A stretch of 64,000 nt of DNA, from positions 37,556,954 to 37,620,953 of the forward strand of contig NC_054712.1 of the NCBI RefSeq assembly GCF_016097555.1. Reading direction: 5' to 3'. Below, in pieces: positions 10,877 through 61,976 of this stretch. Below the pieces are notes generated by a model. That model had not been told where the DNA came from. It was given only the letters and a program-made list of their open reading frames with translations, and ran no database searches. Position 1 is the first letter of the stretch. Every line of letters starts with the position of its first letter. The DNA comes from Gigantopelta aegis (taxonomy: Eukaryota; Mollusca; Gastropoda; Neomphalida; Peltospiridae). Position numbers and translations under genes: made by a program.

Positions 10877-12271
10877 TACTGACGGAAAACACAAACGCAA
10901 GTCCAATTTTGGTAATATAACCTTTTTATCCGTATACCATATGTAGTAACATTTGACATATAGCTACCTCGTTGTACTGTCCAAAGAATCCCTAGTTAAA
11001 ATTGGCCCAAACGTGAGGACGCACAAAGCTGAATGGGTTTTTTACCGATTTGTCAGGAAAGCGTCCATCCGGGCCACTGTCACGTGCTATGAACACTATA
11101 ACAAATCGAAGTTTTGAACAGTACACATCGAGTGCACAACATTTCATTTCAACACGATTGAAAAAAAAATGCAGCGAATGTTACAAGTTGATATGTGTAG
11201 GGCCATTGCTTTAATTATGCATGGGCAATCGCAACGTCGCGTCGCTCAGCAATTTGGGGTACATGCATTAACGATAGCTCGTTTAGTTGGGCGTCACGGA
11301 GACAGGAAGAGTAGCCGACCGTCCCAGGAGCGGACGTCTGCGCGTTACTATGCCGCGTCAAGACAGATGTATACGTCTCGCACACCTCCGTGACGGATTT
11401 CAGACGGCTACGGAGAAAGCGAATCAGGTTGTAGGCACTCATGGTCGTCCAGTGTGTCCACGAACGGTTTGGAATCGGTTGCGGGAGATCAACTTAAGGC
11501 CAAGACGTCCCTACGTTGGTCCGCAACTTACTCCCAGGCGACGTCAACGTCGATTACAATGTTTGCGTGATCATGCACCAAATCGGTTTCACTTAGCCCG
11601 CTGGAGACGTGTGTTATTCACTAACGAATCTCGGTTCTCGCCTTACTGGTCAGATGGCCGACAACGTGTTTTTTTATCCGTCGAGGTGAGCGATATTCAG
11701 ATGCGTGCGTTAAGAAAAACAACAGGGTAATCTTACAACCGTAAAATATTGGGATCAGGTCAGCAGGCCTCACGTCCTTTCACTTATCCATACGCGTAAC
11801 CTTACGTTGCAGTAGGATAATGCGAGGCCGCATGTTGCGACGGTTTGTCTTTAACTTCCTCAACGAAAACCATGTCCAGTGCTCGATTGGCTACCCTACA
11901 GTCCAGATTTGAACCCGATTGCGCATTTGTGGGACGAGCTGGACAGGAGGGCCAGGAAGCACGTCAACGTCCTCACGCAGTTCCTTCTTCATGAGTGGAA
12001 TAACATCCCACAAAGGACCGTAAATAACTTGATTGGGTTAATGGTAAGGAAAATTCGTGCAGCGACTGCAGCCCGGGGTTGGCACGCATGCTAATTATTT
12101 GGATCAGGAAATGGCGTAGAGTATACACATGTCAACGTTTTCCATACAAAACGTGTCATAATTTATTCAGTAATGAAGACAAAACCTAAAACTCCAAACA
12201 AATAATCATCAATAAAACATTTGAAATATTTACCACCAAAAACAAACTTGCGTTTCTTTTTTCCGTCAGTA
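10877..12271 (+). mobile_element. Tc1-like DNA transposon, degenerate
   Basis: A 1.4-kb element. Inverted ends are tactgacggaaaa...aaacgcaagt at the left and acttgcgttt...ttccgtcagta at the right, with TA on both sides. It sits at the edge of TA microsatellite sequence. It carries the decayed transposase annotated separately. Confidence 0.9.
11169..12094 (+). pseudogene. Tc1-like transposase pseudogene
   Basis: Transposase of the surrounding element, spread over at least three frames. The segment from 11169 has the N-terminal HTH (RRVAQQFGVHALTIARLV). A frameshift near 11290-11390 moves to a frame with a second DNA-binding part and the first catalytic region, VLFTNESRFSPYWSDGRQRV. The C-terminal part near 11879 has LPYSPDLNPIAHLWDELDRR. 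In Tc1 proteins these motifs read FTDESRF and NPIEHLWD, so both the first Asp (now Asn) and the catalytic Glu (now Ala) are replaced. The frame breaks and these substitutions make the copy dead. Usual length is about 340 residues, and the decayed span fits that. Confidence 0.85.
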
Positions 12272-43490: not shown

Positions 43491-44559
43491 TTTATGTTTT
43501 GGGCACTACCGGACAATTCGTTCTGGTGCACCGTATCTCTGAAACCACTCAGACACTAGTAACTTTGCTGTGGTCACAGCCTTCTGGTCTTTTGTAGGAA
43601 CAGCCACAGTGAACTTGGTAAACACATCTGTTACGACTGAAACATTTTTTTTTTTTTTTTTTTTCAACTTGAAGATGGTTCCAACGCTACGAAGTCCATG
43701 GCTACAACTTCAAGAGGTCTTGTAGCAATAAGATGTCTCAAAGGTAGTTTGATTTTTTGGTTATGGCAGTTTAGCCACCGCACACGTTTCACACTCTTTA
43801 TACCATTTTCCAACATCTTTGTGCATACCAGGCCAGTGGCATCGTCTTCTAATAAGACTCATGGTTCTTTCAAAACATTGGTGTCCTGTCTGATTATGTA
43901 GACTATGCAGAACGTTCTCTTTCATCACGCCTGGAAATACTATCTGCTTCATATTTCCCAAGTTGGGGTCCTTTACCTTTCTGTAAAGCACATTATTTTC
44001 AATAAACAATCTGTCCCATCGGCGGATTAAGGTCAACGCATCAGATTCTTCTAACCTTCTCTCAGCCCTCCGTGGTTTCCTACCTCTAACCATTTAATGA
44101 AGCACTATCCTTATTAACTTGTCTTTTGCCTGCATCTCCGCTAGCTCTTCTAAAGAGTAGCTAGGACATGATGTTGTGGCTTCTGTAGTTCATGAAACTG
44201 TTCAACTGTAAGAGTTGTTTGTGTGGCATCCCTTCAATTACTATGTGTAGCTTGTCTCATCGTTTGTGGAAATTCTGTACCACCAGCAGTAGTTCTCAAA
44301 GCAGCTTCCACTGATGTAGACGTCATTCCGTGAAATGCCTTCCTGGATAGACCATCAGCATTCTTATTGTGTTGTGCTGAGCGATATTTCACATCAAAAT
44401 CGAATGCTGCAAGTTGAGACACCCATCTCTGCTCCATTGCTCCTAATGTCGCAGTACCAAGATGATTTAGTGGATTGTTGTCCGTATATATGGTAAATGT
44501 ATGTCTAAGAAGATAATCCTTGAATGTTTCAGTTACCGCCCATTTCAGAGCAACAAACC

Positions 44560-44951
44560 GACCTCGGTGGCATCGTGGTTAGGCCATCGTCAACAGGCTG
44601 GTAGGTACTGGGTTCGGATCCCAGTCGAGGCATGGGATCTTTAATCCAGATACCGACTCCAAACCCTCAGTGAGTGCTCCGCAAGGCTCAATAGGTTGGT
44701 GTAAACCACTTGCACCGACCAGTGATCCATAACTGGTTCAACAAAGACCATGGTTTGTGTTATCCTGCCTGTGGGAAGCGCAAATAAAAGATCCCTTGCT
44801 GCTAATCGGAAAGAGTAGCCCATGAAGTGGCGACAGCGTGTTTCCTCTCAAAATCTGTTTGGTCCTTAACCATATGTCTGACGCCATATAACCGTAAATA
44901 AAATGTGTTGAGTGCGTCGTTAAATAAAACATTTCTTTCTTTCTTTCAGAG
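44560..44951 (+). mobile_element. SINE, head 2 and tail A, inserted in the gypsy RNase H region
   Basis: Head 2 (cgacctcggtggcatcgtgg) to tail A with (TTTC)n. The gypsy sequence resumes with a short repeated agagcaaca on each side (about 44551 and 44948), a likely target duplication. Confidence 0.92.
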
Positions 44952-46282
44952 CAACACACTCTACCTTCATGGAACTAGTTGTTTATGTTCTTCTGAGTTG
45001 GTCTTACGCACCGGTTAGCATATGCAATCACTTTCCTTTGTCCATTCTGCCCATGTGACAGTGCATCAGTTTCCACAATAAAAGGTTCACTGAAATCAGC
45101 GTACCCTAACATTGGAGCTGAAGTTAACTTCCCCTTCAGTGTGTCAAAAATGTTTTGACAACTCTAATCCCAAGCAACCTTTAAGCATACGTGTTTCTTC
45201 TTGTCTCGAAACCTGTTCACCAAAGAATGCAAAGGTCCAACAATATGTGAGAATCCTTTCACATACCGTCTGTAGTAATTGGCAAACCCCAAGAAAGACA
45301 TCAAGTCTTTTGATGTTTTTGCAACTTCCCACTCAAGAACAGCCTCCTTTATTTTGTCTGGATCTGTAGCTACCCCGTCTCTAGATATCACATGTCCTAG
45401 ATATTTCACTTCTTTCCTAAGGAAACAGCATTTGCTTGTTTTCAGTTTGAGCCCATGTTGTTTTAAAATTTTAAATACCTCTTCTATTCTGTGGATGTGC
45501 TCAACATATGAACTTGCATAAACTACAATAGCATCCAAGAAGACTAGTAATCTCTGAAATATCTGCTCTCTTAAACAATGTTGTAGGAATCTTTTAAATG
45601 TGGCTAGTGCCCTTGATAAACCAAAAGGCATTCAGTTGTATTAAAACCCATTGGAGTGATGAATGAAGTTTTTGTCTTTATCCTCAACTGCAACCTGGTT
45701 GTATTCACTGGCCATATCCAGTGTAGTAAACCGTTTTGCTCCATGCAAAGCATCTAATGACTCATCTGTTTTAGGAAGTGGAAAGCACTCTTTCCTAGTT
45801 TTAGCATTCAGTCGCCTATAGTCCACACACAGCCGTATCGTGTTGTCCTATTTTCTCACTATAACAATAGGAGATGCATATGGGCTATGGCTGGGGCGAA
45901 CTACATCTTGCTTTATACGTTTCTTGATGTGCTCCTTGACTTCCTCATACTGACTGGGTGGAATTCTTCTGTACGGTTGTGACACTGGTATGTGATCAGT
46001 TGTACGTATTTGGTGTTTTACTCAGTCAGCAAAACCCAAATCAAGGTCATCTTTAGCAAATACATTAGAGTATTTGCTAAGTATTATCTTCAACTTCTTC
46101 TGTTCATCAGAACAATCACAGTTTGAGATATCAACAGGCAAACTATCTTTGTGACCTGTTGAACTCTCTGTGTAAACTGCTATGTGCTCTAACTAAATCT
46201 CTTCTCCTTCTTCTGTCTTTCTAAATCAGTTTTTTTGACTGAGACTCTTCTACCCTTGCCACTGATGACAAAATGCACAGTC

Positions 46283-46396
46283 TAGTTGGGGTTTGTTTGT
46301 TGGTGTTTTTTTGTTGTTGTTGTTGTTGTTTGTTGTTGGTGTTTTTGTGGTGGGGGGTTTGGGGGGGGGGTTGGGTTGTTGTTGTTTTTTGGTGGG

Positions 46397-46427
<31 letters not shown>

Positions 46428-46432
46428 TTATT
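46283..46432. repeat. G/T-rich tract inserted in the gypsy remnant
   Basis: TTTGTTGTTG, GGGGGG and poly-T (about 46399-46426) split the protease-RT spacer. Confidence 0.85.
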
Positions 46433-46611
46433 TCAGCCAAATAGCTGTAGACCCTAAGTTTACAACTCGAACATGAAACGGTTCGTTCTGAACACGAACT
46501 AGAGTGTTTATAACCATCGAATTCGCAGATAAATATCCCGACTTACCTTTCATTTGCTCCACCACAGCATAGCCACCTGAATTGTGCTTGTCGGTTTGAT
46601 AGATAGCATCA

Positions 46612-46678
46612 ATTACAGCACCATATAACGGTAAATAAAATGTGTTGAGTGCGTTGTTACATAAAGCATTTCTTTCAA
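46612..46678 (+). mobile_element. SINE tail A fragment in the gypsy remnant
   Basis: caccatataacggtaaataa to gttacataaagcatttctt. Flanking aattacagcag(c/t)a(g/c) on both sides may be a target duplication. Confidence 0.8.
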
Positions 46679-47190
46679 TTACAGCAGCAGACTCAGCTGG
46701 AATGCAGGCTGGGTGCTCTCCAGTAATTTTGACTGTACCTAAGACGCTTTTTGCTTGTTTGGCAGTCTGTAGACTTGTTATCCAGCTTTGATGTACCGAC
46801 CTGTTAGTCAGTTTCCTGAAGAAATTCTTACCGAGGTCTTCAGCCAGAAATTCTCCACATTGGCTAATAACGTTCATCCCCAATATGTATGGTACTTGCT
46901 CCCTTCATAGCCATGTGGCTTGGTCTTTGTATCTGTTCACAACCAAGATTCCTCTGTCAGAAACTAATTTGCCTAGTGCTTCGATATCCAGTTCAATATA
47001 TTCACAGTTGGGAATATCCAGTCCATTGACAGCCTTGGGCGAGAGCCATCTTTGTTTCACAAGGAGCTCAATATCAAGTGGGGCAAAGTTGTTGTTGAAG
47101 AAATCCTCGGTTATGGTAGTTACCATTGAACCAGTATCTAACAAACAATCAACTTGGATACCTCCCATAGATACTTAACTACGGAACAGT

Positions 47191-48546: not shown

Positions 48547-49012
48547 TAATCCTACGGGTAGTACTATACCAAATAACTTCCGGCTGTGTCAAAGTTCGAG
48601 GTGCACCCAACTTTTGATAGAGAAGTGAACACCACAAGTCCTGTGATTGGTTATAAATGTGAGTGTGTTGGTTGTAAAAAATAATAGTTTCATCTGGGTA
48701 AAATAAATGTGCAATTTTATTTCATCTAGTACCAATGTGTCAAGTAGCCTTGTGCTTGAAACATGTATGGGGTACCTGTAAAAAAAAGTACTCGAATTTT
48801 GTGCGAAACTAGGGTAGTCATAGACGCTACCCGTTATCTCAGAAACGAGCAGCTTGACCCCCATTTTTTTCTGATTCACTTTAAGTGTAAGGGGTGGTAG
48901 TATTTATATCCGTGGCGTTTATGTCGGTTGATACGTTGCAGTTAGGAGTTTTAGCCGCATATGTTACTATTGTCGTCTATGGGATTTGATTTGGTAGTAT
49001 ACACCCTACGGG
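48547..49012. mobile_element. MITE, family ggtgtatactaccaaat
   Basis: Ends gggtagtactataccaaata and tttggtagtatacaccc, bounded by TAC on both sides. A 96-codon minus-strand frame inside is preserved in the copy at 57004 but damaged in the two more diverged copies, so I do not treat it as a gene. Confidence 0.85.
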
Positions 49013-50042: not shown

Positions 50043-50160
50043 ATATTTTAGTCGTTAAAAAGGCTCTAGTAGTCGAAAACATCTTACAATAACAAACAAA
50101 TTCAGGATGGTCTGTTTAAAAATCACAAAAATACCTAAATATGAGTAAATCTGCTAATCA

Positions 50161-50166
50161 TTTATT
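50161..50166 (-). terminator. polyadenylation signal AATAAA of the cysteine-knot gene
   Basis: Canonical AATAAA on the minus strand about 119 bases below the stop codon at 50285. It supports exon D as the last exon, with a 3'UTR of roughly 140 bases. Confidence 0.55.
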
Positions 50167-50284
50167 TGCATTAAAAGATTCATGACGAATTTCCTTCTAC
50201 ACTGATTTTTGAAGAACAGAATGAAGTTCGCTCGTGTCTGCGTTCAGCTTTTCGTTTGGTCAGTCACGTGACATTTTTGGAAAA

Positions 50285-50380
50285 CTAGTTGCATTTGCTG
50301 TATAGACCATACTGTCGACAACGTCCATTGCAACACCTTCTGATCCCGTTTTGTGTACACCGTTCACCTCGTCTGATACA
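50285..50380 (-). CDS. cysteine-knot-like module exon D (terminal)
   Basis: Last exon of the proposed gene. The acceptor is cttgttatttcag (AG at 50382-50381) and the exon opens in phase 0 on a Cys codon. It encodes 31 residues with six cysteines spaced C-x6-C-x7-CC-x3-C-x8-C, then one Asn and a stop. This is the framework of inhibitor-cystine-knot peptides, seen in antimicrobial knottins and in many secreted channel-active peptides. The module is strongly basic (Arg-rich). Its last loop is longer than in modules A-C, and there is no Gly-rich tail. Function is unknown; homology to a named family is not shown. Confidence 0.75.
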   Translation of the reverse strand, partial: CIRRGERCTQNGIRRCCNGRCRQYGLYSKCN

Positions 50381-50414
50381 CTGAAATAACAAGCATTCTT
50401 TCAGAATTTCTGAG

Positions 50415-50886
50415 AGTACTGCTAAAGGTTGTACTATACCAAATAAAATCCCATAGGCGACCATGTTAATGTTTGTGTTTAAAAACACTATATGCAATAT
50501 ATTAACCAAACTATGACCCATAAATATCAGTACTACCACCACTACCTCAAAGTATTAACTGAAGAAAATGGTACCTTTCATGGCTCATTTTCGGTATAAC
50601 CAGATGTTTTTACAACACCCCTAGTTTCGCACAAAATTTTAGTACTTTCTTTTTGTTAAAAGTACTCCATACATGTTTCAAGCACAAAGCTACTTGACAC
50701 AGTGGTACTAGATGAAATAAAACTGCATACATTTTTAGCCCAGAGGAAACTAATTTTATTTTACAACTAACACACTCACATTTATAACCAATCACAAGAC
50801 TTGTGGTGTTAACTTCTCTAACAAAAGTTCCGTGCACCTCCAACTGTGACCCAGCCGGAAGTTATTTGGTTTAGTATAACCTAAAG
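50415..50886. mobile_element. MITE, family ggtgtatactaccaaat, in the C-D intron
   Basis: Ends ggttgtactataccaaata and tttggtttagtataacc, flanked by CTAAA on both sides. It sits 35 bases from exon D. Confidence 0.85.
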
Positions 50887-51118
50887 CAATACATATCCCC
50901 TACCGGGGCCAACAAATTTCCGTATCAAGGGCCATAAATCTTGTCAGAAATGGGTAAATCGCCATGAAAGTCAACCTTGATCTGTAACAGTGCGTGTTAC
51001 ATCTGTACACAAATTTGCAATATCTCAAGGCATTGTGAAGAAACATCTGGAATACTATATACATGGGACAAACGGACGGACGGACAGAGGACCAACAAAC
51101 CGTTTAATTAGATAGGGG

Positions 51119-51322
51119 AAGGGGCGGGATGTAGCCCAGTAAAGCGGTCGATGTGGGATCGATGTGAGCCCATATATACTAAAAGCCGTGGTATTGCTAT
51201 CCTCTCTATGGGATGGTGCATATAAAATATCCTTTGCTACTAATGGAAAAAAGGTAGCAGGTTTCCTCTCTAAAACTGTATATAAATATTACCAAATGTT
51301 TGACATCCAATAGCTATTTCTT
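51119..51322 (+). mobile_element. SINE, head 1, tail B truncated
   Basis: aggggcgggatgtagcccag head with internal deletion, body, and the start of tail B (gtttgacatccaatagc). A second decayed body piece follows to about 51440. Confidence 0.8.
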
Positions 51323-51545
51323 TTTGACTAAGGGAAAAGGGTTCTTGTTGCTAATGGAAAACTATTCCTCGAATAATATGTATCAGGATTACCAAATGTT
51401 TCATATGCAAATCAATTGCTCTAGTCAAGTGAAAAATAAACAAATTACCTTTAAGGATTTGTTCAAAGGAGAAAGAAAGGAATGAAATGTTTGTTAATCG
51501 ACCCTGTATATTTTAAACTTGCATTTCGATTATTTGAGAGAGAAG

Positions 51546-51778
51546 GGGGGGGGGGGGGGGGGGGGGGAAGGGGAAAGAAAGAAAGAACGAAATGAGAAAG
51601 GAAAGGACAGACAGAGTGAGAGAGAGAAAAAGAAAAGAAAGAATGAATGAGCCAGAGAGAGAGGGGGGAGCAAAGAGACAGACAAAGAGAGAGGGAGGAG
51701 AGAAGAGACGGGAACAAAGGGAGGCAGAGTGACAGACGGAGCCAGAAAGAACGAAAGAAAGATAATGAGAGATTGACT

Positions 51779-51838
<60 letters not shown>

Positions 51839-51858
51839 AGAGAGAGGGAGAGAGAGAG

Positions 51859-51922
<64 letters not shown>

Positions 51923-51938
51923 GAGAGAGAGAGAGAGA

Positions 51939-51973
<35 letters not shown>

Positions 51974-52060
51974 CAGACAGAGAGAGACAGACAGAGATAA
52001 GACAGAGACAGAGACAGAAAGACGAGGGAGAGAGACAGAGATAGAGACAGAAAGAGTCGT
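51546..52060. repeat. poly-G and (GA)n compound microsatellite
   Basis: 22 G at about 51546-51567, then GA-rich sequence with long perfect GA blocks at about 51781-51832 and 51864-51918. Confidence 0.95.
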
Positions 52061-52114
52061 TAAATCGCTCTGGATGGAAGCCGGTATCGAAAATGTTTTA
52101 ACATAAAAACTCAC

Positions 52115-52228
52115 CCCAATAATACCGCCATTTCCGCCATTTCTTCTCTCGCATCTATTTCGTCGACATCTCATATTGCTACAACACCTACGTCCGTTGT
52201 TGTTACATTTCCTACCTTGACCGATGCA
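52115..52228 (-). CDS. cysteine-knot-like module exon C
   Basis: Acceptor acaattttcag (AG at 52230-52229); opens in phase 0 on a Cys codon. Encodes 38 residues with cysteines spaced C-x6-C-x6-CC-x4-C-x4-C, then Glu-Arg-Arg and an Asn/Gly-rich tail (NGGNGGIIG). The exon ends ATTATTGGG with a consensus gtgagt donor at 52114, also phase 0, so it is a symmetric 0-0 exon that can be joined or skipped without a frameshift. The Arg-Arg just after the last Cys is a possible convertase site. Confidence 0.78.
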
Positions 52229-52312
52229 CTGAAAATTGTTTGACCAAAAAATGATCGTCTACATCTTACTTCTGTAATATGTCAAAATTTTCAAATATTC
52301 TACAATCTGTAA

Positions 52313-52329
52313 TCATCATTATCATCTCT

Positions 52330-52362
<33 letters not shown>

Positions 52363-52500
52363 TTTAACAATAACATCATCATCTGACAATAATCTTCATC
52401 ATCATTAACAACAGCATCATCATCACCATCATCATCATAACCGTCATCATTATCATCATTTTTAACAACAACATCATCATCAGCTGACATAATAATGATC
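52313..52500. repeat. (CAT)n microsatellite
   Basis: CAT/TCA trinucleotides with interruptions, in the intron between modules B and C. Confidence 0.92.
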
Positions 52501-53011
52501 ATCATCACCATCAGATCGCGGTTGGAGAGACAAGGACTGGGATGTGGAGGTGGACAGCGAAAGAAGTTGAAAGATAGGAGTTATCAGATCGGGAAGAAAT
52601 GAGATGGAATTCAAAGATGGGAAACGAAAGGATGCAGTGGTGGTGGTGGTGGAGGGGAAATATATCTGCAACCGCACGAATATGATCACTATTATGATTA
52701 TGCAGGACTTTAGGAACGGTATCTGGGGTTAGGGGCACAATCCGTATAATTATGCACGCTTTTTTTTTTCGCTTTTTTTTTGGTAGGGGGTCGAGGGTAC
52801 CAAAAAGGAGTTTGAAATGTTTGATAATAGTGTGTGGTGGGTGTGGGTAATTTTTGGCATGCTTCCATCAGAGAACTGCACGTCAATCGTGGGTACAACC
52901 TCTGACTTCGCCAGAGAGTCCTGTCGACGACAGGGATTTTGATAATTGCGAACGGCCCGGCCCCTTAACTAAATGAAAAGCTGTTTTAACATTGCGGCAA
53001 AGAGTACCAAC

Positions 53012-53134
53012 CCCTCCTCCTATTCCGCCGCCTCCCCCGTTGTTTCGCCTCTGGCATCTATTCTGTCGACAGGCGAGGTTCCCACAACACTTGGGATATC
53101 CTAATTGCTTACAATACTGACCTCGAGATTGACA
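53012..53134 (-). CDS. cysteine-knot-like module exon B
   Basis: Acceptor ttcatttccag (AG at 53136-53135), phase 0, first codon Cys. Cysteine spacing C-x6-C-x7-CC-x4-C-x4-C, then Gln-Arg-Arg-Asn-Asn and a Gly-rich tail (GGGGGIGGG). By alignment with exon C the donor should follow GGAGGAGGG, but here it reads gttggt instead of gtgagt, a weak site. If unspliced, the frame continues 43 more codons to a stop at 52883. Module B differs from A by two residues in loop 2 (LGYPK versus MGNPK). Confidence 0.72.
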
Positions 53135-53239
53135 CTGGAAATGAAAATGAAAGTATAAAACCAACTATAATAATTTGAATAAGCTGAGCACGCGAAGTGT
53201 ATTCCAGAGGAGCACTGTTAGTGAAATTCGAAAAGAAGA

Positions 53240-53552
53240 AGTTTTTGTTTTGTTTAACGACACCACTAGAGTACATTAATGTATTAACCATCGGCTATTG
53301 CATATCAAACATTTTGTATTTCTGACATATAGTCTTAGAGAGGAAACCCGGTAAAAAAAAATTCCATTAGCAGCTAGGGATGTTTTATATGCAACATTCC
53401 ACAGATAGAATAGCACATACCACGGCCTATGATATACCAATCGTGGAGCACAGGCTGGAACGAAGGTGATGGGCCTATCGACGGGGATCGATTTCACATT
53501 GACCGCGCATGAAGCGAGCGCTTTAACACTGGGCTACGTCCCGTCCCTCCAA
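53240..53552 (-). mobile_element. SINE, tail B with head 1 (duplication copy 1)
   Basis: tttgttttgtttaacgacacc to gctttaacactgggctacgtcc. Same insertion as 55362-55665. Confidence 0.88.
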
Positions 53553-53749
53553 CGACAAAAAAAAATTGAAATAATTTGGCCAAAGGTCATTCCAGATGTA
53601 TTTATTTTTACAATGTTTTATATTTAAACATGTTGAGATAAAATAACGTTTTAAAAATGATGAAAGAGAAGAATGTGTGTTGGAACAAACGGAAGTCTTG
53701 ATACGGCTGAAAACTCTTTTTAAGTTCATAAACATGGTTAATATTAATA

Positions 53750-53967
53750 CTAGGTTAATATTCATTTTACTTCCTAACGAAATATTTTTTCGTATGTACG
53801 AAATTATTTGAAGACAAAATCCAGTTTGGGCTTCTAACAAATATTAAGACGATCAGAAACACATTGAATATACAGAAACTGATATTCTAAACAAGAAAAT
53901 TAACCGTAGAATTATTTTATTAGTCGAAAACATCTTCCAAGGCAGCAAACTCAGGAATGTCCCTTTA
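53750..53967. mobile_element. fold-back MITE, right part
   Basis: aggttaatattcattttact, central ttcgtatgtacgaa, right end ctcaggaatgtcccttt. Flanked on both sides by a direct 100-bp duplication (53634-53735 and 53968-54068). Confidence 0.8.
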
Positions 53968-54169
53968 AGATAAGATAGCGTTTTAAAAATGATGAAAGAG
54001 AAGAATGTGTGTTGGAACAAACGGAAGTCTTGATACGGCTGAAAACTCTTTTTAAGTTCATAAACATGCGCAGATTCACATTCTGTTTAACATTCTAAAC
54101 GTATATACAGAGTTGATTTCGTTTGTTATATATAGAAAAACTCGAGTTCTTATGGTTATCTTCTAAAAC

Positions 54170-54430
54170 AGGCCTCGGTGGTGTCGTGGTTAAGTCATCG
54201 GACATAAGGCTGGTAGGTACAGGGTTCGCAGCCCAGTACCGGCTCCCATGCAGAGCGAGTTTTAACGACTCAATGGGTATGTGTAAGACCACTACACCCT
54301 CTTCTCTCTCACTAACCACTAACAGCTATCCTAGACAGACAGCCCAGAGAGCTGAGGTGTGTGCCAAGGACAACGTGTTTGAACTTTAATGGGATATAAG
54401 CACGAAAATAAGCTGAAATGTAATGAAATG
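54170..54430 (+). mobile_element. SINE, head 2 with tail C (intact reference)
   Basis: aggcctcggtggtgtcgtgg head; body includes gagcgagttttaacgactc, which is the uninterrupted version of the site hit by a MITE in copy 2. Confidence 0.88.
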
Positions 54431-54467
54431 AAAAAGATCTTCTAAATATTCACCACAACGTAATATA

Positions 54468-54991
54468 TACTCTTCAAAACAGTAGGGGAACTCTAATAAG
54501 AATTTACAATTGCCAAAATTGTAAGGTATATTAGCTGTGGGGAATGGTTATATGATAATAGTGAATTAAATGGGTAAACATTACAACCGGTAGTTCAGCA
54601 TTACAGTAGGTTTTATGACCACTAAAGATCTTGAAGGACGATTGGGGTTAGAAGTGAAATTTGAAAGTTGACGCTTTTTTATCAGTGAATCGCAAATTCA
54701 AACAATAAAAAATTATTAAAAACAAAACTGTATGATCAACAGAATAAAAACATATTGACAGAAATAATGTTTCACAGTGATTAATGGAAATTCCTGGAAA
54801 TTGTCAAAATCAAGAATGACACCCCACGGACGTTGTACGGGGCAACTGCGTGATGCATATGCAAACTATGGAATAGGTTTCGGTGTGCTGATAAACAGAC
54901 CTGAATGTTCTTTACTAGGATGTCTGTGGTCAAAACATATGTTCGGTCTAAGATTAATATTTCAGGTTCCCCTACCTTTTTTGAAGAGTAT
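54468..54991. mobile_element. 0.52-kb TIR element tactcttcaaaa, copy 1
   Basis: Inverted ends tactcttcaaaacagtagggg and cccctaccttttttgaagagta. Non-autonomous. Copy 2 is at 57826-58357; fragments are at 10782 and 36330. Confidence 0.85.
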
Positions 54992-55156
54992 TCATTGACG
55001 TTGTGTTGTCTAGAGTATGACTCGTCCTATGTGGCATTCGTTAGTGTGAAATTAATAAGAGAGTCCTGTCGACGACAGGGCGTTTGATAATTGCGAACGG
55101 CCCGGTCCCTTAACTAAATGAAAAACTGTTTTAACACTGCGGTAAAGAGTACCAAC

Positions 55157-55279
55157 CCCTCCTCCTATTCCGCCGCCTCCCCCGTTGTTTCGCCTCTGGC
55201 ATCTATTCTGTCGACAGGCGAGGTTCCCACAACACTTGGGATTACCCATTTGCTTACAATACTGACCTCGAGATTGACA
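55157..55279 (-). CDS. cysteine-knot-like module exon A
   Basis: Paralogue of exon B within the tandem duplication. Acceptor ttcatttccag (AG at 55281-55280), phase 0, first codon Cys. Cysteines C-x6-C-x7-CC-x4-C-x4-C, then Gln-Arg-Arg and a Gly-rich tail. The predicted donor is the same weak gttggt; without splicing, the frame stops at 55052. All six Cys codons and the acceptor are preserved between A and B, while the read-through part differs (an extra Cys in B is Tyr in A). That suggests constraint on the module but not on the extension. Confidence 0.72.
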
Positions 55280-55361
55280 CTGGAAATGAAAATGAAAGTA
55301 TAAAACCAACTATAACAATTTGAATAAGCTGAGCACGCGAAATTCGAAATTCGAAAAGAAG

Positions 55362-55665
55362 GAGTTTTTGTTTTGTTTAACGACACCACTAGAGCACATT
55401 AATGTATTAATCATCGGCTATTGCATATCAAACATTTTGTATTTCTGACATATAGTATTAGAGAGGAAACCCGGTAAAAAATTTTTTCCATTAGCAGCCA
55501 GGGATGTTTTATATGCAACATTCCACAGATAGAATAGCATATACCGCGGCCTATGATATACCAGTCGTGGAGCACAGGCTGGAACGACGGGGATGGGCCT
55601 ATCGACGGGGATCGATTTCACACTGACCGCTCATGAAGTGAGCACTTTAACACTGGGCTACGACA
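55362..55665 (-). mobile_element. SINE, tail B with head 1 (duplication copy 2)
   Basis: Counterpart of 53240-53552. Confidence 0.88.
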
Positions 55666-55742
55666 AAACAAAATTTGAAATAATTTGGCCAAAGTTCATT
55701 CCAAATGTATTTATCTGTACATGTTTTATATTTAAAACATGT

Positions 55743-56520
55743 TAAAGGGACATTCCTGAGTTTGCTGCAAGGTTTTAAGATGTTATCGACTAATAAAATA
55801 GTTCTACGATTAAACTTACATATTAAATATATTTTCTAGTTTAGAATATTAGTGGCTGTATATTAAACGTGTTTCTGATCGTTCTAATATTTGTACTAGG
55901 TTAATATTCATTTTACTTCCTAAAGAAATATGTTTTCGTATGTACGAAATTATTTGAAGACGAAATCCAGTTTGGGCTTCTAACAAATATTAAGACGATC
56001 AGAAACACATTGAATATGCAGACACTGATATTCTAAACAAGAAAATATATTTAAAGGGACACTCCTGAGTTTCCTGCATTGTAAAATGTTTCCGACTAAT
56101 AAAATAGTTCTACGATTAAACTTACATATTAAATATATTTTCTTGTTTAGAATATCAGTGTCTGTATATTCAATGTGTTTTTGGTCGTCTTAATATTTGT
56201 AACAAGCCCAAACTGGATTTTGTCTTCAAATAATTTCGTACGTACGAAACAAATTATATTTTTGGAAATAAAATTCAATTTAACCTAGGACAAATATTAG
56301 AACGATTAGAAATACGTTTCATAAACAGCCACTAATGTTTTATGCAGAAAAATATATTTGATATGTAATTACAACCGTTAAAAACTCTCTGTTAGTCGAT
56401 AACATCTTAAAAATTGCAGCAAAGTCAGGAATGTCTCACTAATATGTAAGTTTAACCGTAGAAATATTTTATTAGTCGAAAATATCTTACAATACAGCAA
56501 ACTCAGGAATGTCCCTTTAA
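55743..56520. mobile_element. fold-back MITE with another copy of its own family inside
   Basis: Outer element: left part 55743-56053, right part 56438-56520 (tatgtaagtttaaccgtaga... ctcaggaatgtcccttt). Inner element: 56054-56437, complete, with ends aaagggacactcctgag and caggaatgtctcac. It is inserted at TA in atatatttaatatg. Confidence 0.88.
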
Positions 56521-56727
56521 GATAAGATAGCGTTTTAAAAATGATAAAAGAGAAGAATGTGTGTTAGAACAAACGGAAGTCTTGATACGGCTGAAAACTC
56601 TTTTTAAGTTCATAAACATACGCGGATTCACTTTCTGTTTAACATTCTAAACGTATATACAGAGTTGATTTCGTTTGTTATATATATATAGAAAAACTCG
56701 AGTCCTTATGGTTATCTTCTAAAACAG

Positions 56728-57785
56728 GCCTCGGTGGTGTCGTGGTTAAGCCATCGGACATAAGGGTTCGCAGCCCAGTACCGGTTCCCACCCAGAGCGA
56801 GTTTTAAAGGGGAATTCCTGAGTTTGCTGCATTGAAACATGTTTCCGACTAATAAAATATTTCTACGATTAAACTTCTATATTAAATATATTTTCTTGCT
56901 TAGAATATCAGTGTCTTTATATTCAATGTGTTTCTGGTCGTCTTAATATATGTAAGAAGCCCAAACTGAACTTTGTCTTCAAATAATTTCGTATGTACGA
57001 AAAATTTAAGGTAGTACTATACCAAATAACTTCCGGCTGGGTCAAAGTTCGAGGTGCACCCAATTTTTGATAGAGAAGTGAACACCACAAGTCCTGTGAT
57101 TGGTTATAAATGTGAGTGTGTTGGTTGTAAAAAATAATAGTTTCATCTGGGTAAAATAAATGTTCAATTTTATTTCATCCAGTACCAATGTGTCAAGTAG
57201 CCTTGTGCTTGAAACATGTATGGGGTACCTGTAAAAAAAAGTACTCAAATTTTGTGCGAAACTAGGGTAGTCATAGACGCTACCCGTTATCTCAGAAACG
57301 AGCAGCTTGACCCCCATTTTTTTCTGATTCACTTTAAGTGTAAGGGGTGGTAGTATTTATATCCGTGGCGTTTATATCGGTTGATACGTTGCAGGTAGGA
57401 GTTTTAGCCGCATATGTTACTATTGTCGTCTATGGGATTTGATTTGGTAGTATACACCCTTAACATAGTACAAATATTAGAACGATCAGAAACACGTTTA
57501 ATATAAAACTACAAATATTTTATGCAGAAAAATATATTTAATATATAATTACAATCGTTAAAAAGTCTCTGTTAGTCGATAACATCTTAAACATTGCAGC
57601 AAATTCAGGAATGTTCCTTTAACGACTCAATGGGTACGTGTAAAACCACTACACCCTCTTCTCTCTCACTAACCACTAACAGCTATCCTAGACAGACAGC
57701 CCAGAGAGCTGAGGTGTGTGCTAGGGACAGCGTGTTTGAACCTTAATGGGATATAAGCACGAAAATAAGCTGAAATGTAACCAAA
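56728..57785 (+). mobile_element. SINE (head 2, tail C) split by nested MITEs
   Basis: Left part 56728-56813 and right part 57621-57785. Between them lies a fold-back MITE (56814-57003 plus 57464-57620), itself split by a ggtgtatactaccaaat MITE (57004-57463). TTAA flanks the innermost element on both sides, and TTAA/TA flanks the middle one, as judged against the uninterrupted SINE at 54170. Confidence 0.9.
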
Positions 57786-57825
57786 TGAAAAACAAATTTC
57801 TAAATATTCACCACAACGTAATATA

Positions 57826-58357
57826 TACTCTTTAAAAAAAAGTAGGGGAACTCTAATAAGAATTTACAATTGCCAAAATTGTAAGGTATATTAGCTGTGG
57901 GGAATGGTTATATGATAATAGTGAATTAACTGGGTAAACATTACAACCGTTAGTTCAGCATTTCAGTTGCTTTTATGACCACCAAAGATGTTGAAGGACT
58001 ATTGGGGTCAGAAGTGAAATTTGAAAGTTGACGGTTTTTTATCAGTGAATCACAAATTCAAACAATAAAAATGACTAAAAACAAAACAATAACAACTGTA
58101 TGATCAACAGAATGAAAAAGATTGACAGAAATACTGTTTTACAGTGATTAATGGAAATTTCTGGAAATTGTCAAAATCAAGAATGACACCCCACGCATGT
58201 GTATGGGGCAACTGCGTGATGCATGTGCAAACTATGGAATAGGTTTTGGTGTGCTGATAAACAGACCTGAATGTTCTTTAGTAGGATGTCTGTGGTCAAA
58301 ACATATGTTCGGTCTAACATTAATATTTCAGGTTCCCCTACCTTTTTTGAAGAGTAT
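57826..58357. mobile_element. 0.53-kb TIR element tactcttcaaaa, copy 2
   Basis: Counterpart of 54468-54991, with small indels (acaaaacaataacaactg near 58082). Confidence 0.85.
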
Positions 58358-58427
58358 TCATTGACGTTGTGTTGTCTCGAGTATGTCTCGTCCTATGTGG
58401 AACTCATTAGTGTGAAATCAATAAGTA

Positions 58428-58913
58428 TTACATTACTAGACACAATAAGTAAAACTAGAACGCGTCTTTGATACTGGCTGAATTTATGTTTAATCACGCG
58501 GTCGCCATTACTCCCTTTACCAGAAATATAAGTAGGAAGTCAAATTATTATGAAAGCAATTTGGTATATTGGTGCAATAATTTAATGAATCCACAGTTCG
58601 GTTTTTTTATATTCATTTAGATTATTTTAGCACTAGAGGAACTAATAAGAACCGTCTTAATTTAAGTGAACCCGCCAGTTCGAAAAGCAATATCATAAAA
58701 ATAAAACTAATGTAAGATTTCCGTCGGATAAAAATAAGCGATCTGTAATATACTACGCAGGGCCTGTTTAATAGTTTCCTATCGTTCTAATCGCTTCTCT
58801 TTGTTTTTTCTTCTTCTGTTTTTTTCTTTTTCATCGTTTGCCTGTTTTGTACTTATGTACATGATGCCGTACTTTGCAAGAATTGTTTTGCACTTAGGTC
58901 CGGCCAACTACCG
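58428..58913. other. proposed intron of the cysteine-knot gene, no feature recognised
   Basis: Unique AT-rich sequence. No further signal-peptide or six-Cys exon was found here on the minus strand. Confidence 0.45.
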
Positions 58914-58996
58914 CACACACATGGTGCATATAAAAGATCTCTCTCTACCAATGTAAAAATTACCAAATGTATGACATCCAATAGCCGTTGATTAAT
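58914..58996 (+). mobile_element. SINE body and tail B fragment
   Basis: catggtgcatataaaagatc...gccgttgattaataaa. Confidence 0.75.
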
Positions 58997-59170
58997 AAAT
59001 GCATTTTGTGATATTAAGTACACCAGGATGACCAAAAACACTTCGAATGTACGGAAATTGATAATCTAAACAATAAAATCTAAGTAGAGTATGATTTCAG
59101 TTGTCAAAAAACGGCTCTAATAGTAAAAAATATTCCTTAGTGTTTAAAACTAGGGCATGTCCCTTTAACT
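58996..59170. mobile_element. right half of the aaagggacagaccctag MITE
   Basis: atgcattttgtgatattaag to actagggcatgtcccttt, same family as 4410 and 13950. Confidence 0.85.
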
Positions 59171-59171
59171 T

Positions 59172-59310
59172 TAACATACATACGTACATACATACATACA
59201 TACATACATACATACATACATACATACATACATAGTATACATAGTATACATAGTATACATATAATCATACATACATACATACATACATACCGGTACATAC
59301 ATACATACAT
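59172..59310. repeat. (CATA)n microsatellite
   Basis: CATA units with TAGTATACATAG interruptions. Confidence 0.93.
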
Positions 59311-59317
59311 GCACGTA

Positions 59318-59572
59318 AGCGGGATCGACCACGTAGATTGTAGGCCCCATGTACAGGTTCGAGTCCCAGCAACGGCATGGAACAATTTGTAAGGCCAGAA
59401 AGGATTTAATTATCCCCTGCGCCAGTGCGTTAATATCTATGTATGTAACAGTCAACCTCGACATACATACAATATATAGATATTCATACATCAATACATA
59501 CATACATACATACATACATACATACATACATACATAGTATACATACAATCATACATATATACATATATACAG
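59318..59572 (+). mobile_element. SINE with CATA tail, sister of 10205
   Basis: ggttcgagtcccagcaacgg B-box region, gcgccagtgcgttaatatct body, then (CATA)n from about 59480 to 59572. Confidence 0.75.
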
Positions 59573-60261
59573 CAGTTGGGACATTTTGGGCCGATTTGGT
59601 ACATAATGTTTTGAACGGTACATCTTGGGCGGTTGGGACATTTTGGACTTCAACACCCTCATCCTAGACCGACCGCTTATCAAGCGAGCACTTTACCACT
59701 GGGCCACAGGCTACCTGTTAACAATAGTGGGTTAGTTAGTGACACATTGTTAGTGGTCAGTGAGACCCTGTCAGATTCAGTTTGGTATACTGCTACGTCA
59801 AAATAAATCATGCATATTTTAGGAGTTAGCGGCTCATCGTTTAGTTTGGCACAGTCAAAATAAATATGTCGTGAGACGAATCCAGAGAGTAACCATGGCC
59901 GCCATGCACACCCCAACCCCCACCTCCATCACATATTTTTCATTCACCTTTTATATTGCCGTGCCTTGCAATCAAAACAGGACTTAACAGGGTGAGGTTT
60001 GTTTGGGTAATTATTTTCAAAAATGTGAGGGTTCTTTGATTGTGGGGTTGGGTTGGGTTGGGGTTTGTTTGTTTTTTTGTTTTTTTGTTTTTTGTTTTTT
60101 TGTTTTTTTGGGGGGTTGTCTAAGGAAATATTTTTTTCTTACATCTGTTTAACATGTATCCAGTGAATATTTTAGCTGGAATTAAGACAAACTTGCTAAC
60201 TAATTAATTGTGTATTCAAGTGTCTGGGGTGTGAAAAAAATGGTAGCATTTTCAAAGAACA
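59573..60261. other. no gene recognised; SINE head 1 trace and G/T tract
   Basis: A head 1 remnant on the minus strand lies at about 59663-59710 (gtggcccagtggtaaagtgc). A G/T-rich tract is at about 60035-60118. The rest is unique. Confidence 0.5.
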
Positions 60262-60650
60262 ACTGGCCCAGTGCTTATAAAACGTTTAGAGCCCAGCCTC
60301 AATCTCTAATGGCGTCATCACACGCATACAATTTTAGAGCCCAGCCTCAATCTCTAATGGCGTCATCACACGCATACAATTTTAGAACCCAGCCTCAATC
60401 TCTAATGACGTCACACGCATACAATTTTAGAGCCCAGCCTCAAGCTCTAATGACGTCGCACGCATACAATTTGTATGGCGTTGCCATGACGTTAGTGTTG
60501 CACGCTGCTAGTCTCGAGTCTAGTCTCTAAAAGTTATATAAGTTCAGACTTTAATGTCATGGCAACGCCATTCAAATAGCATTACGTTAAAGTCTGTACT
60601 TTATTAAAGTCTAGACTTTAAGTTTTATAAGCACGGCGCCTGGTATATTA
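60262..60650. mobile_element. MITE with cagtgcttataaaac ends and four internal tandem units
   Basis: Inverted ends cccagtgcttataaaacg and gttttataagcacgg. Inside, four tandem units of 48, 48, 45 and 45 bases (60284-60470) each contain tctaatggcgtcatcacacg or tctaatgacgtcacacg. A frame runs through them on the plus strand (60210-60530) but has no support as a gene. It lies in the intron just downstream of the signal-peptide exon. Confidence 0.82.
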
Positions 60651-60676
60651 TATAAGGAAGGCTAGGTTTTTCTTAC

Positions 60677-60744
60677 TTGCGATGTGACGACTGTCAATAC
60701 CGCCGCCAAAACGAGACATATCAAAAAGCAATTCATCTTGTCCG
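60677..60744 (-). CDS. signal-peptide exon of the cysteine-knot gene
   Basis: Acceptor tttttttttcag at 60746-60745, then eight bases of 5'UTR (cggacaag), ATG at 60736-60734 and 20 codons: a basic-free start (MNCF), a hydrophobic core (LICLVLAAVLTVV) and a Thr-Ser-Gln cleavage region. The donor gtaaga follows at 60676 in phase 0. A typical secretory signal peptide encoded on its own exon, in the same phase and strand as the six-Cys exons below. This is the only signal-peptide exon I found between 50 and 61 kb. Its link to the modules rests on strand, phase and order and has not been tested by transcript data. Confidence 0.75.
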
Positions 60745-60802
60745 CTGAAAAAAAACCCCACAGAAATCATAATGTATGATATATGAAAGAAAAATTATTC
60801 TT

Positions 60803-61026
60803 AAGTTTGTTTTGTTTAACGACACTACTAGAGCACATTGGTTTATTAATCATCGGCTATTGGATGTCAAACATTTTGTAATTTTGACATATATTCTTAG
60901 AGAGGAAACCGCTACATTTTTTTCATTAGTAGCAAGGGATCTTTATTATGCGCCATCCCACAGACAGGATAGCACATACCACGACCTTTGATGTACCAGT
61001 TGTGGAGCAATGGCTGGAACGAGTTG
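60803..61026 (-). mobile_element. SINE, tail B body, headless
   Basis: tttgttttgtttaacgacac to ggagcaatggctggaacgag. In the proposed first intron. Confidence 0.85.
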
Positions 61027-61095
61027 GCCGTTGGATGTCAAACATTTGTTAATTCTTACATATAGAGAGTACTTGCACTTGCTGTTTTTCTTTTC

Positions 61096-61382
61096 ATGGG
61101 GTTGGGGGTATATAGCTCAGGAGTAAAAGCGATCGCCAATCGGGCTATTTCTCGTTCCAGCCAGTGCACCACGAATGGTATATCAAAGGCCATGGTATGT
61201 ACTATCCTGTCTGTGGGATGGTGCATATAAAAAAAAAATCCCGTGCTAGTAATGGAAATATATAGCGGGTTTCCTTTACAATACTACATGTCAGTGCTAC
61301 AAAATGTTTGACATGCAGTAGCCGATGATTAATAAATCAATGTTTTTAGTGGTGTCGTTAATTAAAACAAACTTTAACTTTG
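61096..61382 (+). mobile_element. SINE, head 1 and tail B
   Basis: gggtatatagctcaggagta head (B-box deleted), body, and tail B. In the proposed first intron, inverted relative to the previous SINE. Confidence 0.85.
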
Positions 61383-61622
61383 AGCTGGACATAGGCATTA
61401 TTAGTAAATATGACTTAAAATCGATGGCCTGGCTTTATAATAAAATTAAAGTTAGATAAGTACAAATATATTTTAAATAAATATGTTCATTCAAAATAGT
61501 TATTTAATGTTGTTACGTGTTCTTGTTAGAAAACTGAACTAATTTTCTGATTATCATTGGAGAAAGAAAACATATATTTTCACGTAAACTAAACCAGAGT
61601 TTACCAAATTTGCTGTACTTAC

Positions 61623-61655
61623 AGTTTCTTGATGAGACTTCTCAGGGCACGTTCG
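61623..61655 (-). other. putative 5'UTR exon of the cysteine-knot gene
   Basis: The minus strand reads acgaacgtgccctgagaagt, continues to aagaaact, and then has a perfect gtaagt donor at 61622. About 30 bases upstream is a TATTTAAA. This would be a short non-coding first exon spliced to the acceptor at 60745. Inferred from position and signals only. Confidence 0.5.
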
Positions 61656-61674
61656 TACATTCGGTGTGGCGTTG

Positions 61675-61682
61675 TTTAAATA
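61675..61682 (-). promoter_or_regulatory. TATA-like box (TATTTAAA)
   Basis: Minus-strand TATTTAAA placed about 25-30 bases above the proposed transcription start. Sequence immediately above it is conserved in the inverted duplicate at 63710-63967. Confidence 0.45.
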
Positions 61683-61976
61683 CACTTTTGAAGTCCATAA
61701 CTGCGGATAACATCAGACGTTTGATCGGTGGTTATCACATAAACACATCTCTCTCCGGACGTTCCCTGCGTTCTCTATATTACAAAAATGACATCTTTTT
61801 TAATAAAAATAAGACGATATTGAAATACTATGGCTTCATTGTGACACGTTTTACATGTGTTGTGAAATTACTGAGTGAGACGCGACACGACATTGAAGAT
61901 AAATAAATGACCCACTTCATACAGTTGTAACACTGATACTTTAAACACGTCAGCTACTCTGGATTGAACAGTTTAA

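What the first reader, a model, noticed from the sequence alone, without database searches (positions are those of the whole stretch)
50140..61700. Candidate gene for a secreted, multi-module cysteine-knot-like peptide
On one strand, in order, lie a TATA-like box, a 5'UTR donor, a signal-peptide exon ending in phase 0, four six-cysteine exons each opened by a good acceptor in phase 0 on a Cys codon, a stop right after the last module, and an AATAAA about 119 bases on. Spacing is C-x6-C-x6/7-CC-x3/4-C-x4/8-C, the inhibitor-cystine-knot framework. Modules are strongly basic. I cannot name a family, and this may be an undescribed mollusc peptide. Function (defence, signalling or other) is open.
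Basis: partly seen in the sequence, partly recalled or inferred. Interest (0 to 1): 0.88.

Follow-up and report, generated by a model that had tools for sequence, protein, structure and literature searches.

The report
Snail gene of four cystine-knot exons
A vent snail carries a gene, apparently unannotated, for a secreted protein of four small disulfide-knotted units, each on its own exon, and relatives of it lie elsewhere on the same chromosome; this suggests that such multi-unit peptides can grow by copying exons, a route that studies of spider and mussel peptides considered and did not find.

Summary
Confirmed. On the minus strand of 50.1-61.7 kb lie a signal-peptide exon and four six-cysteine exons, all in phase 0, with the stop one codon after the last cysteine. 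The spacing is inhibitor cystine knot (ICK). Window modules alone match solved ICK peptides weakly (best E 0.007); a profile with six relatives reaches 1.2e-7. The species is Gigantopelta aegis, a vent snail with two endosymbionts. Modules 1 and 2 arose by head-to-tail duplication of a ~2.15 kb stretch, junction 55058/55059. The gene is not alone: related ICK exons lie on the same chromosome at 21.47, 50.89 and 51.55-51.64 Mb. In 13 of 13 intact modules read, the exon opens on Cys1 directly after an AG acceptor. Multi-ICK proteins are known, but mussel mCRP-I and the spider Hc1a subfamily hold all knots in one exon, and their authors argue against exon duplication. This family looks like that missing route. 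The gene's protein was not found in a database holding its neighbour receptor; expression is unproven. Best guess: a cationic, multivalent defence peptide. Release of single knots is the main rival.

The parts
61623..61682 (-). TATTTAAA at 61682 and possible non-coding first exon ending GAAACT|gtaagt at 61623
   Evidence: motif only; weakest part of the model
60677..60744 (-). signal-peptide exon, ATG at 60736, MNCFLICLVLAAVLTVVTSQ, phase-0 donor gtaaga
   Evidence: DNA search of the whole genome finds this place alone at E <= 0.001
55157..55279 (-). ICK module 1, 41 aa, Gly-rich tail
53012..53134 (-). ICK module 2, 41 aa; 4 nt and 2 residues differ from module 1, all in a 7-nt stretch of the loop between Cys2 and Cys3
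52115..52228 (-). ICK module 3, 38 aa, Gly-rich tail, most basic of the four
50285..50380 (-). ICK module 4, 31 aa, terminal, with TAG one codon after the last Cys
50161..50166 (-). AATAAA polyadenylation signal
52913..55058 (-). copy A of the duplicated unit, carrying module 2
   Evidence: collinear matches to 55058-58425
55059..58425 (-). copy B of the unit, carrying module 1, longer through insertion here or loss in copy A
   Evidence: junction at 55058/55059

Best explanation
It is a protein-coding gene of Gigantopelta aegis for a secreted, strongly cationic protein of four inhibitor-cystine-knot domains joined by flexible Gly/Arg/Asn linkers. Each domain sits on one phase-0 exon, symmetric in the three inner ones, so inner exons can be added or skipped without breaking the frame. 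It is a divergent member of a family on chromosome contig C14 that grew by tandem duplication of single exons. The most likely working is that the protein stays joined and acts as a multivalent binder of anionic or membrane targets on microbes or parasites, that is, as a defence effector. Shown: the exons, frames, cysteine arrays, the tandem unit and the relatives. Inferred: splicing into one transcript, the disulfide pairing (1-4, 2-5, 3-6), secretion, staying uncleaved, and the defence role. My odds: real gene of this architecture about 0.93; stays joined about 0.6; defence role about 0.45.
Against: No transcript was seen. The protein was not found in a database that holds the G. aegis receptor of the same window, so it was not predicted or not expressed in the tissues used. 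Donors of modules 1 and 2 are weak. A mussel ICK peptide, sCRP-I H1, showed no antibacterial and no protease-inhibitor activity and was toxic to eukaryotic cells instead (PMC10138031, section 3.6 read). Cationic charge alone does not show antimicrobial action, and relatives at 21.47 Mb have acidic tails. The best profile hits, Xt3a and Hi1a, are toxins of the channel-acting kind. Each of modules 1-3 ends ...C-x-R-R-N, a possible cleavage site.
Confidence: 0.5

Rival explanations
1. The protein is a precursor. Proprotein convertases cut at the RR that follows Cys6 of modules 1-3, and separate small knottins act alone, each of the later ones with a Gly-rich head.
For: RRN follows Cys6+1 in modules 1, 2 and 3 and the terminal module ends one residue after its Cys6. 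Of 7 non-terminal relatives read, 1 keeps RR (CQRRNGNGQ) and 3 have RK (CRKASSSEEDD, CRKSSEDD twice). Mussel CRP-I precursors carry dibasic sites, though before the mature part (PMC10138031).
Against: There is no propeptide, the linkers would stay as odd Gly-rich heads, and 3 of the 7 relatives lack a dibasic pair there (CEREQEH, CQRSDDDS, CVPIETDT).
Confidence: 0.25
2. A mature endogenous ion-channel or receptor ligand, or a venom-like toxin, of the bivalent spider-toxin type.
For: The best profile hits are double-ICK toxins Xt3a and Hi1a; one relative, at 51592861, passes the Pfam Toxin_12 cut-off of 21 (22.5 bits, 22.7), and one at 21470989 comes near the Toxin_7 cut-off (22.4 of 27).
Confidence: 0.12
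3. A structural or glycan-binding secreted protein, for instance of mucus, shell matrix or operculum, where Arg-rich knots and Gly-rich linkers bind polyanions.
For: Gly-rich spacers and high Arg content; IGFBP mini-domain folds appear among the model's matches, 5 of 28 rows.
Against: No sequence match to matrix proteins in Pfam; IGFBP matches may only be a common arrangement.
Confidence: 0.1
4. A decaying or silent relic of the family, not expressed.
For: Not found in the protein database; weak donors; a decayed module lies at C14:21468632 in a relative locus, so decay does occur.
Against: All four frames, 24 Cys and all AG/GT borders are intact, and module divergence shows dN below dS. Between the 5%-diverged copies no indel hit the exon, though the exon's substitution count, 4 against 6.5 expected, is not significantly low (P 0.22).
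Confidence: 0.07

Closest known systems
Mytilus mCRP-I (multiple-array cysteine-rich peptides, mussels; PMC10138031)
   Same: Secreted mollusc peptides with two to five knottin arrays; modules 1-3 fit the published array C(X3-6)C(X1-7)CC(X3-4)C(X3-5)C; array number varies between genes.
   Different: mCRP-I have a conserved propeptide with a dibasic site and all arrays in the fourth exon, and the authors call exon duplication not plausible there. Here there is no propeptide and one exon per array; module 4 has an 8-residue last loop. No direct sequence comparison was run.
Bivalent spider ICK toxins Hi1a/Hc1a and DkTx (PMC13172734, PMC6262176)
   Same: Tandem ICK domains in one secreted chain; Hi1a is the second-best PDB profile match (E 9.4e-7, two stretches).
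   Different: The Hc1a genes have signal, pro and mature exons with the double knot inside the third exon by intra-exonic duplication; for DkTx the paper leaves the mechanism open. Venom use. Here exons duplicate, four domains, no propeptide.
Xt3a (PDB 7rz3), a solved double-ICK chain
   Same: Best PDB match of the family profile, E 1.2e-7, with two stretches matched.
   Different: Two domains; its remipede venom origin is recalled, and its gene structure was not seen here.
Nasonin-6 of the wasp Nasonia (PMC2853521, passages)
   Same: Several repeats of a small disulfide domain, each on its own exon, explained by exon duplication; listed among antimicrobial-peptide-like genes.
   Different: Defensin-like fold, not ICK, and phase 1 introns rather than phase 0.
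Tachystatin-type ICK antimicrobial peptides
   Same: Cationic ICK; tachystatin B1/B2 match at E 0.27 with window modules and 0.002 with the family profile.
   Different: Single domain; match is weak and may be convergent.

Membership tests
ICK / knottin fold | six Cys in C-C-CC-C-C order with knottin-like loops | tested here: met
   4 of 4 window modules
ICK / knottin fold | fold with short C-terminal beta hairpin, matching solved knottins | tested here: met
   models with two C-terminal strands, pLDDT 73.1 and 83.5; by my reading at least 20 of 28 Foldseek rows are knottin-type; sequence profile with relatives E 1.2e-7. Against: no Foldseek E below 0.001, pTM 0.49 and 0.42
ICK / knottin fold | disulfides 1-4, 2-5, 3-6 forming a knot | not testable with these tools
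   needs the folded peptide
Pfam Toxin_12 (PF07740) | score over the curated cut-off of 21 bits | tested here: not met
   full chain 9.9, module 2 11.3, module 3 16.7 bits, module 4 no match; the relative at C14:51592861 does pass, 22.5-22.7 bits
Mytilus CRP-I | array C(X3-6)C(X1-7)CC(X3-4)C(X3-5)C | tested here: inconclusive
   modules 1-3 fit; module 4 does not, last loop 8
Mytilus CRP-I | propeptide with dibasic cleavage site before the mature part, and mature part in one exon | tested here: not met
   Cys1 directly follows the signal-peptide exon; one exon per array; definition from PMC10138031
SCREPs (secreted cysteine-rich repeat proteins) | signal peptide plus tandem cysteine-rich repeats in one chain | tested here: met
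   on the predicted protein; one transcript not shown. Definition from abstract and passages of PMC6262176
C14 exon-ICK family proposed here | ICK exon opening on Cys1 directly after the acceptor, phase 0 at both ends or ending in a stop | tested here: met
   13 of 13 intact modules read: 4 in the window, 6 in L034-L036, 3 in L037 (donors were sought in frame only); one further copy in L037, at 21468632, is decayed; the other places were not read
C14 exon-ICK family proposed here | sequence likeness beyond the cysteines | tested here: met
   with Cys fixed and other residues shuffled, 0 of 1000 shuffles reach the summed score of the six cluster modules against the window's four; singly p 0.004, 0.047, 0.049, 0.008, 0.24, 0.07. 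The three L037 modules were not in this test
Antimicrobial peptide | kills or inhibits microbes | not testable with these tools
   charge only

The most novel reading that the evidence does not exclude
A chromosome-wide, exon-per-knot ICK family expanded in this vent snail and its members, with exon number and skipping tuning valency, serve to control or confine its two intracellular endosymbionts, in the manner of the cysteine-rich peptides of legume nodules and aphid bacteriocytes (parallel recalled). The strongly cationic four-knot protein of the window would be one of these effectors.
Probability: 0.1. Interest if true: 0.85.

Novelty: new variant of a known kind. Interest (0 to 1): 0.64.

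Why it matters
Multi-domain ICK peptides have arisen repeatedly, and how is an open question. [quoted passage not shown] the mussel study calls exon duplication not plausible for mCRP-I. Here the expected route is visible in the DNA, including one event young enough to keep its junction and a decayed copy elsewhere. Symmetric exons also predict isoforms with different numbers of knots from one gene, testable with RNA data that were sequenced from four individuals and several organs (PMC7895826, passages). The window gene appears to be unannotated; whether its relatives are was not tested.

Tried and rejected
Full-length and signal-plus-module searches of the 5.8-billion-protein set gave nothing. 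To test whether that silence means anything I searched the receptor gene of the same window: 8 hits at E <= 1e-10, the best one G. aegis itself. So metazoan proteins are held and the knottin was not found among them.

Two weak genome hits to module 1, C4:49225908 (E 0.33) and C740:86587 (E 7.2), are Gly-rich chance matches without the array. The lesser PF07740 hits on C12, C10 and C13 show no array; the one on C388 was not looked at. That search also rang, below its cut-off, in 1 of 14 control genomes.

I first took the gene for a singleton, because module 3 found modules 1-3 only and module 1 found modules 1-3 and the two chance hits. The Pfam search overturned that. Genome search with module 4 did not complete, and the tool scores only its best candidates, so counts are lower bounds.

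Purifying selection read from the module 1/2 exon alone fails: 4 differences against 6.5 expected, P 0.22. That all four lie within 7 nt is unlikely for random spots (0.000255) but was noticed after the fact and may be one mutation event. NCBIfam and PHROGs gave nothing. I considered defensin, WAP, EGF and granulin folds and dropped them, because of the array and because most PDB profile hits are ICK peptides. Not all are: with module 2 alone 2 of 6 rows are HIV envelope constructs, matched by the Gly tail; the relative at 51592861 also matches a granulin-type chain (1fwo, E 0.17) and prokineticin Bv8 (E 0.47) among 20 rows; Pfam gives weak DUF116 and Dickkopf_N matches to two relatives. The reference for that relative, 40 codons, includes one codon of the donor side.

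Signal-peptide exons for the cluster genes were not found with confidence in the 30 kb read. In one search, 4 of 12 rows carry a stop inside the match, so some members may be decayed or have their stop right after the module. PMC6700725 and PMC7736800 (passages) added nothing.
Full report
WHAT IS IN THE SEQUENCE. The signal exon encodes MNCFLICLVLAAVLTVVTSQ and ends in phase 0. Four exons follow, each opened by an acceptor and a Cys codon in frame: 41, 41, 38 and 31 residues. The last ends KCN-stop. The predicted mature chain has 151 residues, 24 Cys, 32 Lys/Arg against 2 Asp/Glu, pI 10.1. A six-frame scan finds these four arrays and no other in 64 kb, where 0.033 are expected, and none in 200 kb of flanks. 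Signal-peptide-like phase-0 exons are rare: 2 in the window over both strands, one of them this and one a microsatellite, and 2 in 200 kb of flanks. The 5'UTR exon and TATA box rest on short motifs and I give them little weight.

WHOSE GENOME. The window is C14:37556954-37620953 of a 1.15 Gb genome. A receptor gene in the window, spliced by hand (338 residues), matches 'histamine H2 receptor-like [Gigantopelta aegis]' (363 residues) at 93% identity over the whole query; the entry's contig length, 59,883,994, equals that of C14. The published host genome is 1.15 Gb with 15 pseudo-chromosomes (PMC7895826, passages), and the snail keeps two gammaproteobacterial endosymbionts (abstract start in the listing) in bacteriocytes of its oesophageal gland. 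The protein database therefore holds G. aegis proteins, and the knottin was not found there by two searches.

FOLD. Module 2 and module 3 were modelled from four-row alignments: pLDDT 73.1 and 83.5, pTM 0.49 and 0.42, with two short C-terminal strands. Foldseek has no match under E 0.001, but by my reading at least 20 of the 28 rows for module 3 are ICK-type peptides of spiders, cone snails, sponges and others; 5 rows are IGFBP domains and one is a fungal-protease inhibitor. VIA gives low Z, as for so small a domain: 4.1 with rmsd 1.2 over 30 residues for module 2, and for module 3 4.5 with rmsd 1.0 over 30 (its top row, 4.6, has rmsd 6.4). By sequence, profiles of the window's modules reach E 0.007 (4 rows) and 0.0088 (12 rows), all ICK peptides to my knowledge. 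The profile of ten modules, six of them relatives, finds 43 at E up to 1, best Xt3a 1.2e-7 and Hi1a 9.4e-7, both chains of two ICK domains. Neither the chain nor modules 2-4 pass a Pfam cut-off.

EXON DUPLICATION SEEN IN THE DNA. Modules 1 and 2 differ at 4 of 123 bases. The likeness runs on into the introns: 52913-55059 is collinear with 55058-58425 in four pieces of 89.5-95.7% identity, with unmatched stretches between them in the longer copy. The end of one unit meets the start of the next at 55058/55059, reading AATAAG then AGAGTCC; by eye the outer ends share only AG, so the event looks like microhomology-mediated tandem duplication rather than recombination between repeats (inference). 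A 7-base-arm inverted repeat, CCTGTCGACGACAGG, lies near the unit's edge. Intron divergence over those four pieces is 98 of 1865, 5.3%; two further short, non-collinear rows were left out. Between older modules dN is 0.46-0.60 and dS 1.1-1.9, with Fisher p 0.019, 0.061 and 0.013 for three non-independent pairs: coding constraint, moderately supported.

A FAMILY ON ONE CHROMOSOME. Genome search with modules 3 and 1 found only the window's own modules 1-3 and chance hits. A Pfam Toxin_12 search then gave one place over the cut-off, C14:51592861, 14 Mb away. It is again an exon opening on Cys after a cag acceptor, in phase 0. Reading 30 kb around it showed six such exons, among them a minus-strand series 51609748, 51608929, 51607303-stop and another 51600365, 51597766-stop. 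Searching with two of these gave 12 and 12 rows at E up to 10, self matches included, and 24 of 24 rows lie on C14, one of 5216 contigs. They are 17 distinct places: 12 at 51.55-51.64 Mb, one at 50.886 Mb, three at 21.467-21.471 Mb, and, last at E 6.1, the window's module 2. Four of the 24 rows have E above 1. 4 of 12 rows contain a stop within the matched stretch. The 21.47 Mb stretch holds three intact modules, two of them close copies, plus one decayed copy at 21468632. Of the 13 intact modules read (4 + 6 + 3), 13 open on the Cys codon directly after an AG; 10 have a phase-0 donor and 3 are terminal with the stop one codon after the last Cys. Likeness of the cluster to the window modules goes beyond the cysteines: 0 of 1000 Cys-fixed shuffles reach the summed score, while single modules range from p 0.004 to 0.24. 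The 21.47 Mb modules were fetched later and are not in that test or in alignment A4. Linkers vary: GGGGGIGGG and RRNGGNGG in the window, QRRNGNGQ in the cluster, acidic RKSSEDD at 21.47 Mb. That the exons of each series form one gene is inferred from order and phase.

HOW IT PROBABLY WORKS. The simplest reading is a secreted chain of four cationic knots on flexible linkers, whose exon structure lets evolution, and perhaps splicing, set the number of knots. Joined ICK domains gain avidity, as described for DkTx and Hi1a (PMC6262176, abstract and passages). Tachystatin-type ICKs are antimicrobial (Nasonia paper PMC2853521, passages). In a snail not known to have venom (recalled) I favour defence, at about 0.45. 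Against it, a mussel knottin had no antibacterial and no protease-inhibitor effect and was toxic to eukaryotic cells (PMC10138031, section 3.6); that points to eukaryotic parasites as alternative targets. Processing at RR after Cys6 is the main rival; of 7 non-terminal relatives, 1 keeps RR and 3 have RK.

COMPARISON WITH WHAT IS KNOWN. [quoted passage not shown] Exon-per-domain repeats are described for defensin-like nasonin-6 (passages). In ten literature searches I saw no listing that describes an ICK gene with one exon per knot or an ICK family of G. aegis; several of these listed only the top part of their results, and subscription papers are not held, so this is not proof of absence. The kind, a tandem-ICK secreted protein, is known; the gene architecture and route of growth appear new for it.

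VERDICT. A real and well-read observation, raised by the family and the frozen duplication, held back by the lack of any transcript and by an open function.

Noticed in passing
window 17655-40651, minus strand: Rhodopsin-type receptor gene in at least three coding exons, matching 'histamine H2 receptor-like [Gigantopelta aegis]'; the public model holds 25 more residues than my splice, near the second exon.
   Followed up: partly
window 52920-52934 and 55065-55079: Perfect inverted repeat CCTGTCGACGACAGG near the edge of both copies of the duplicated unit; possible fragile site (seen by eye).
   Followed up: no
C14:51620433/51621362 and 51628744/51629668: Two pairs of ICK matches on the plus strand, 8.3 kb apart from each other, look like a further segmental duplication inside the cluster; not read.
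   Followed up: no
L037 (C14:21466901-21471900), place 21468632: Decayed copy of an ICK exon with its acceptor kept, beside two close intact copies: exon gain and loss in one locus.
   Followed up: partly
window 57010-57460 and 48557-49007: 98.4% identical 451-base repeats, one in the gene's first coding intron and one downstream of the gene; probably a young transposable element.
   Followed up: no
window 711-1947 (+), 11118-11727 (+), 43764-46904 (-): Transposon-like ORFs: of the pieces scanned, 711-1361 matches helix-turn-helix and Tc3 transposase models below cut-off, 45167-45631 a reverse transcriptase above cut-off, 11118-11390 no Pfam family.
   Followed up: partly
window 55243-55249 against 53098-53104: All four differences between modules 1 and 2 fall in 7 nt of one loop; focused change or one multi-base event.
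   Followed up: partly
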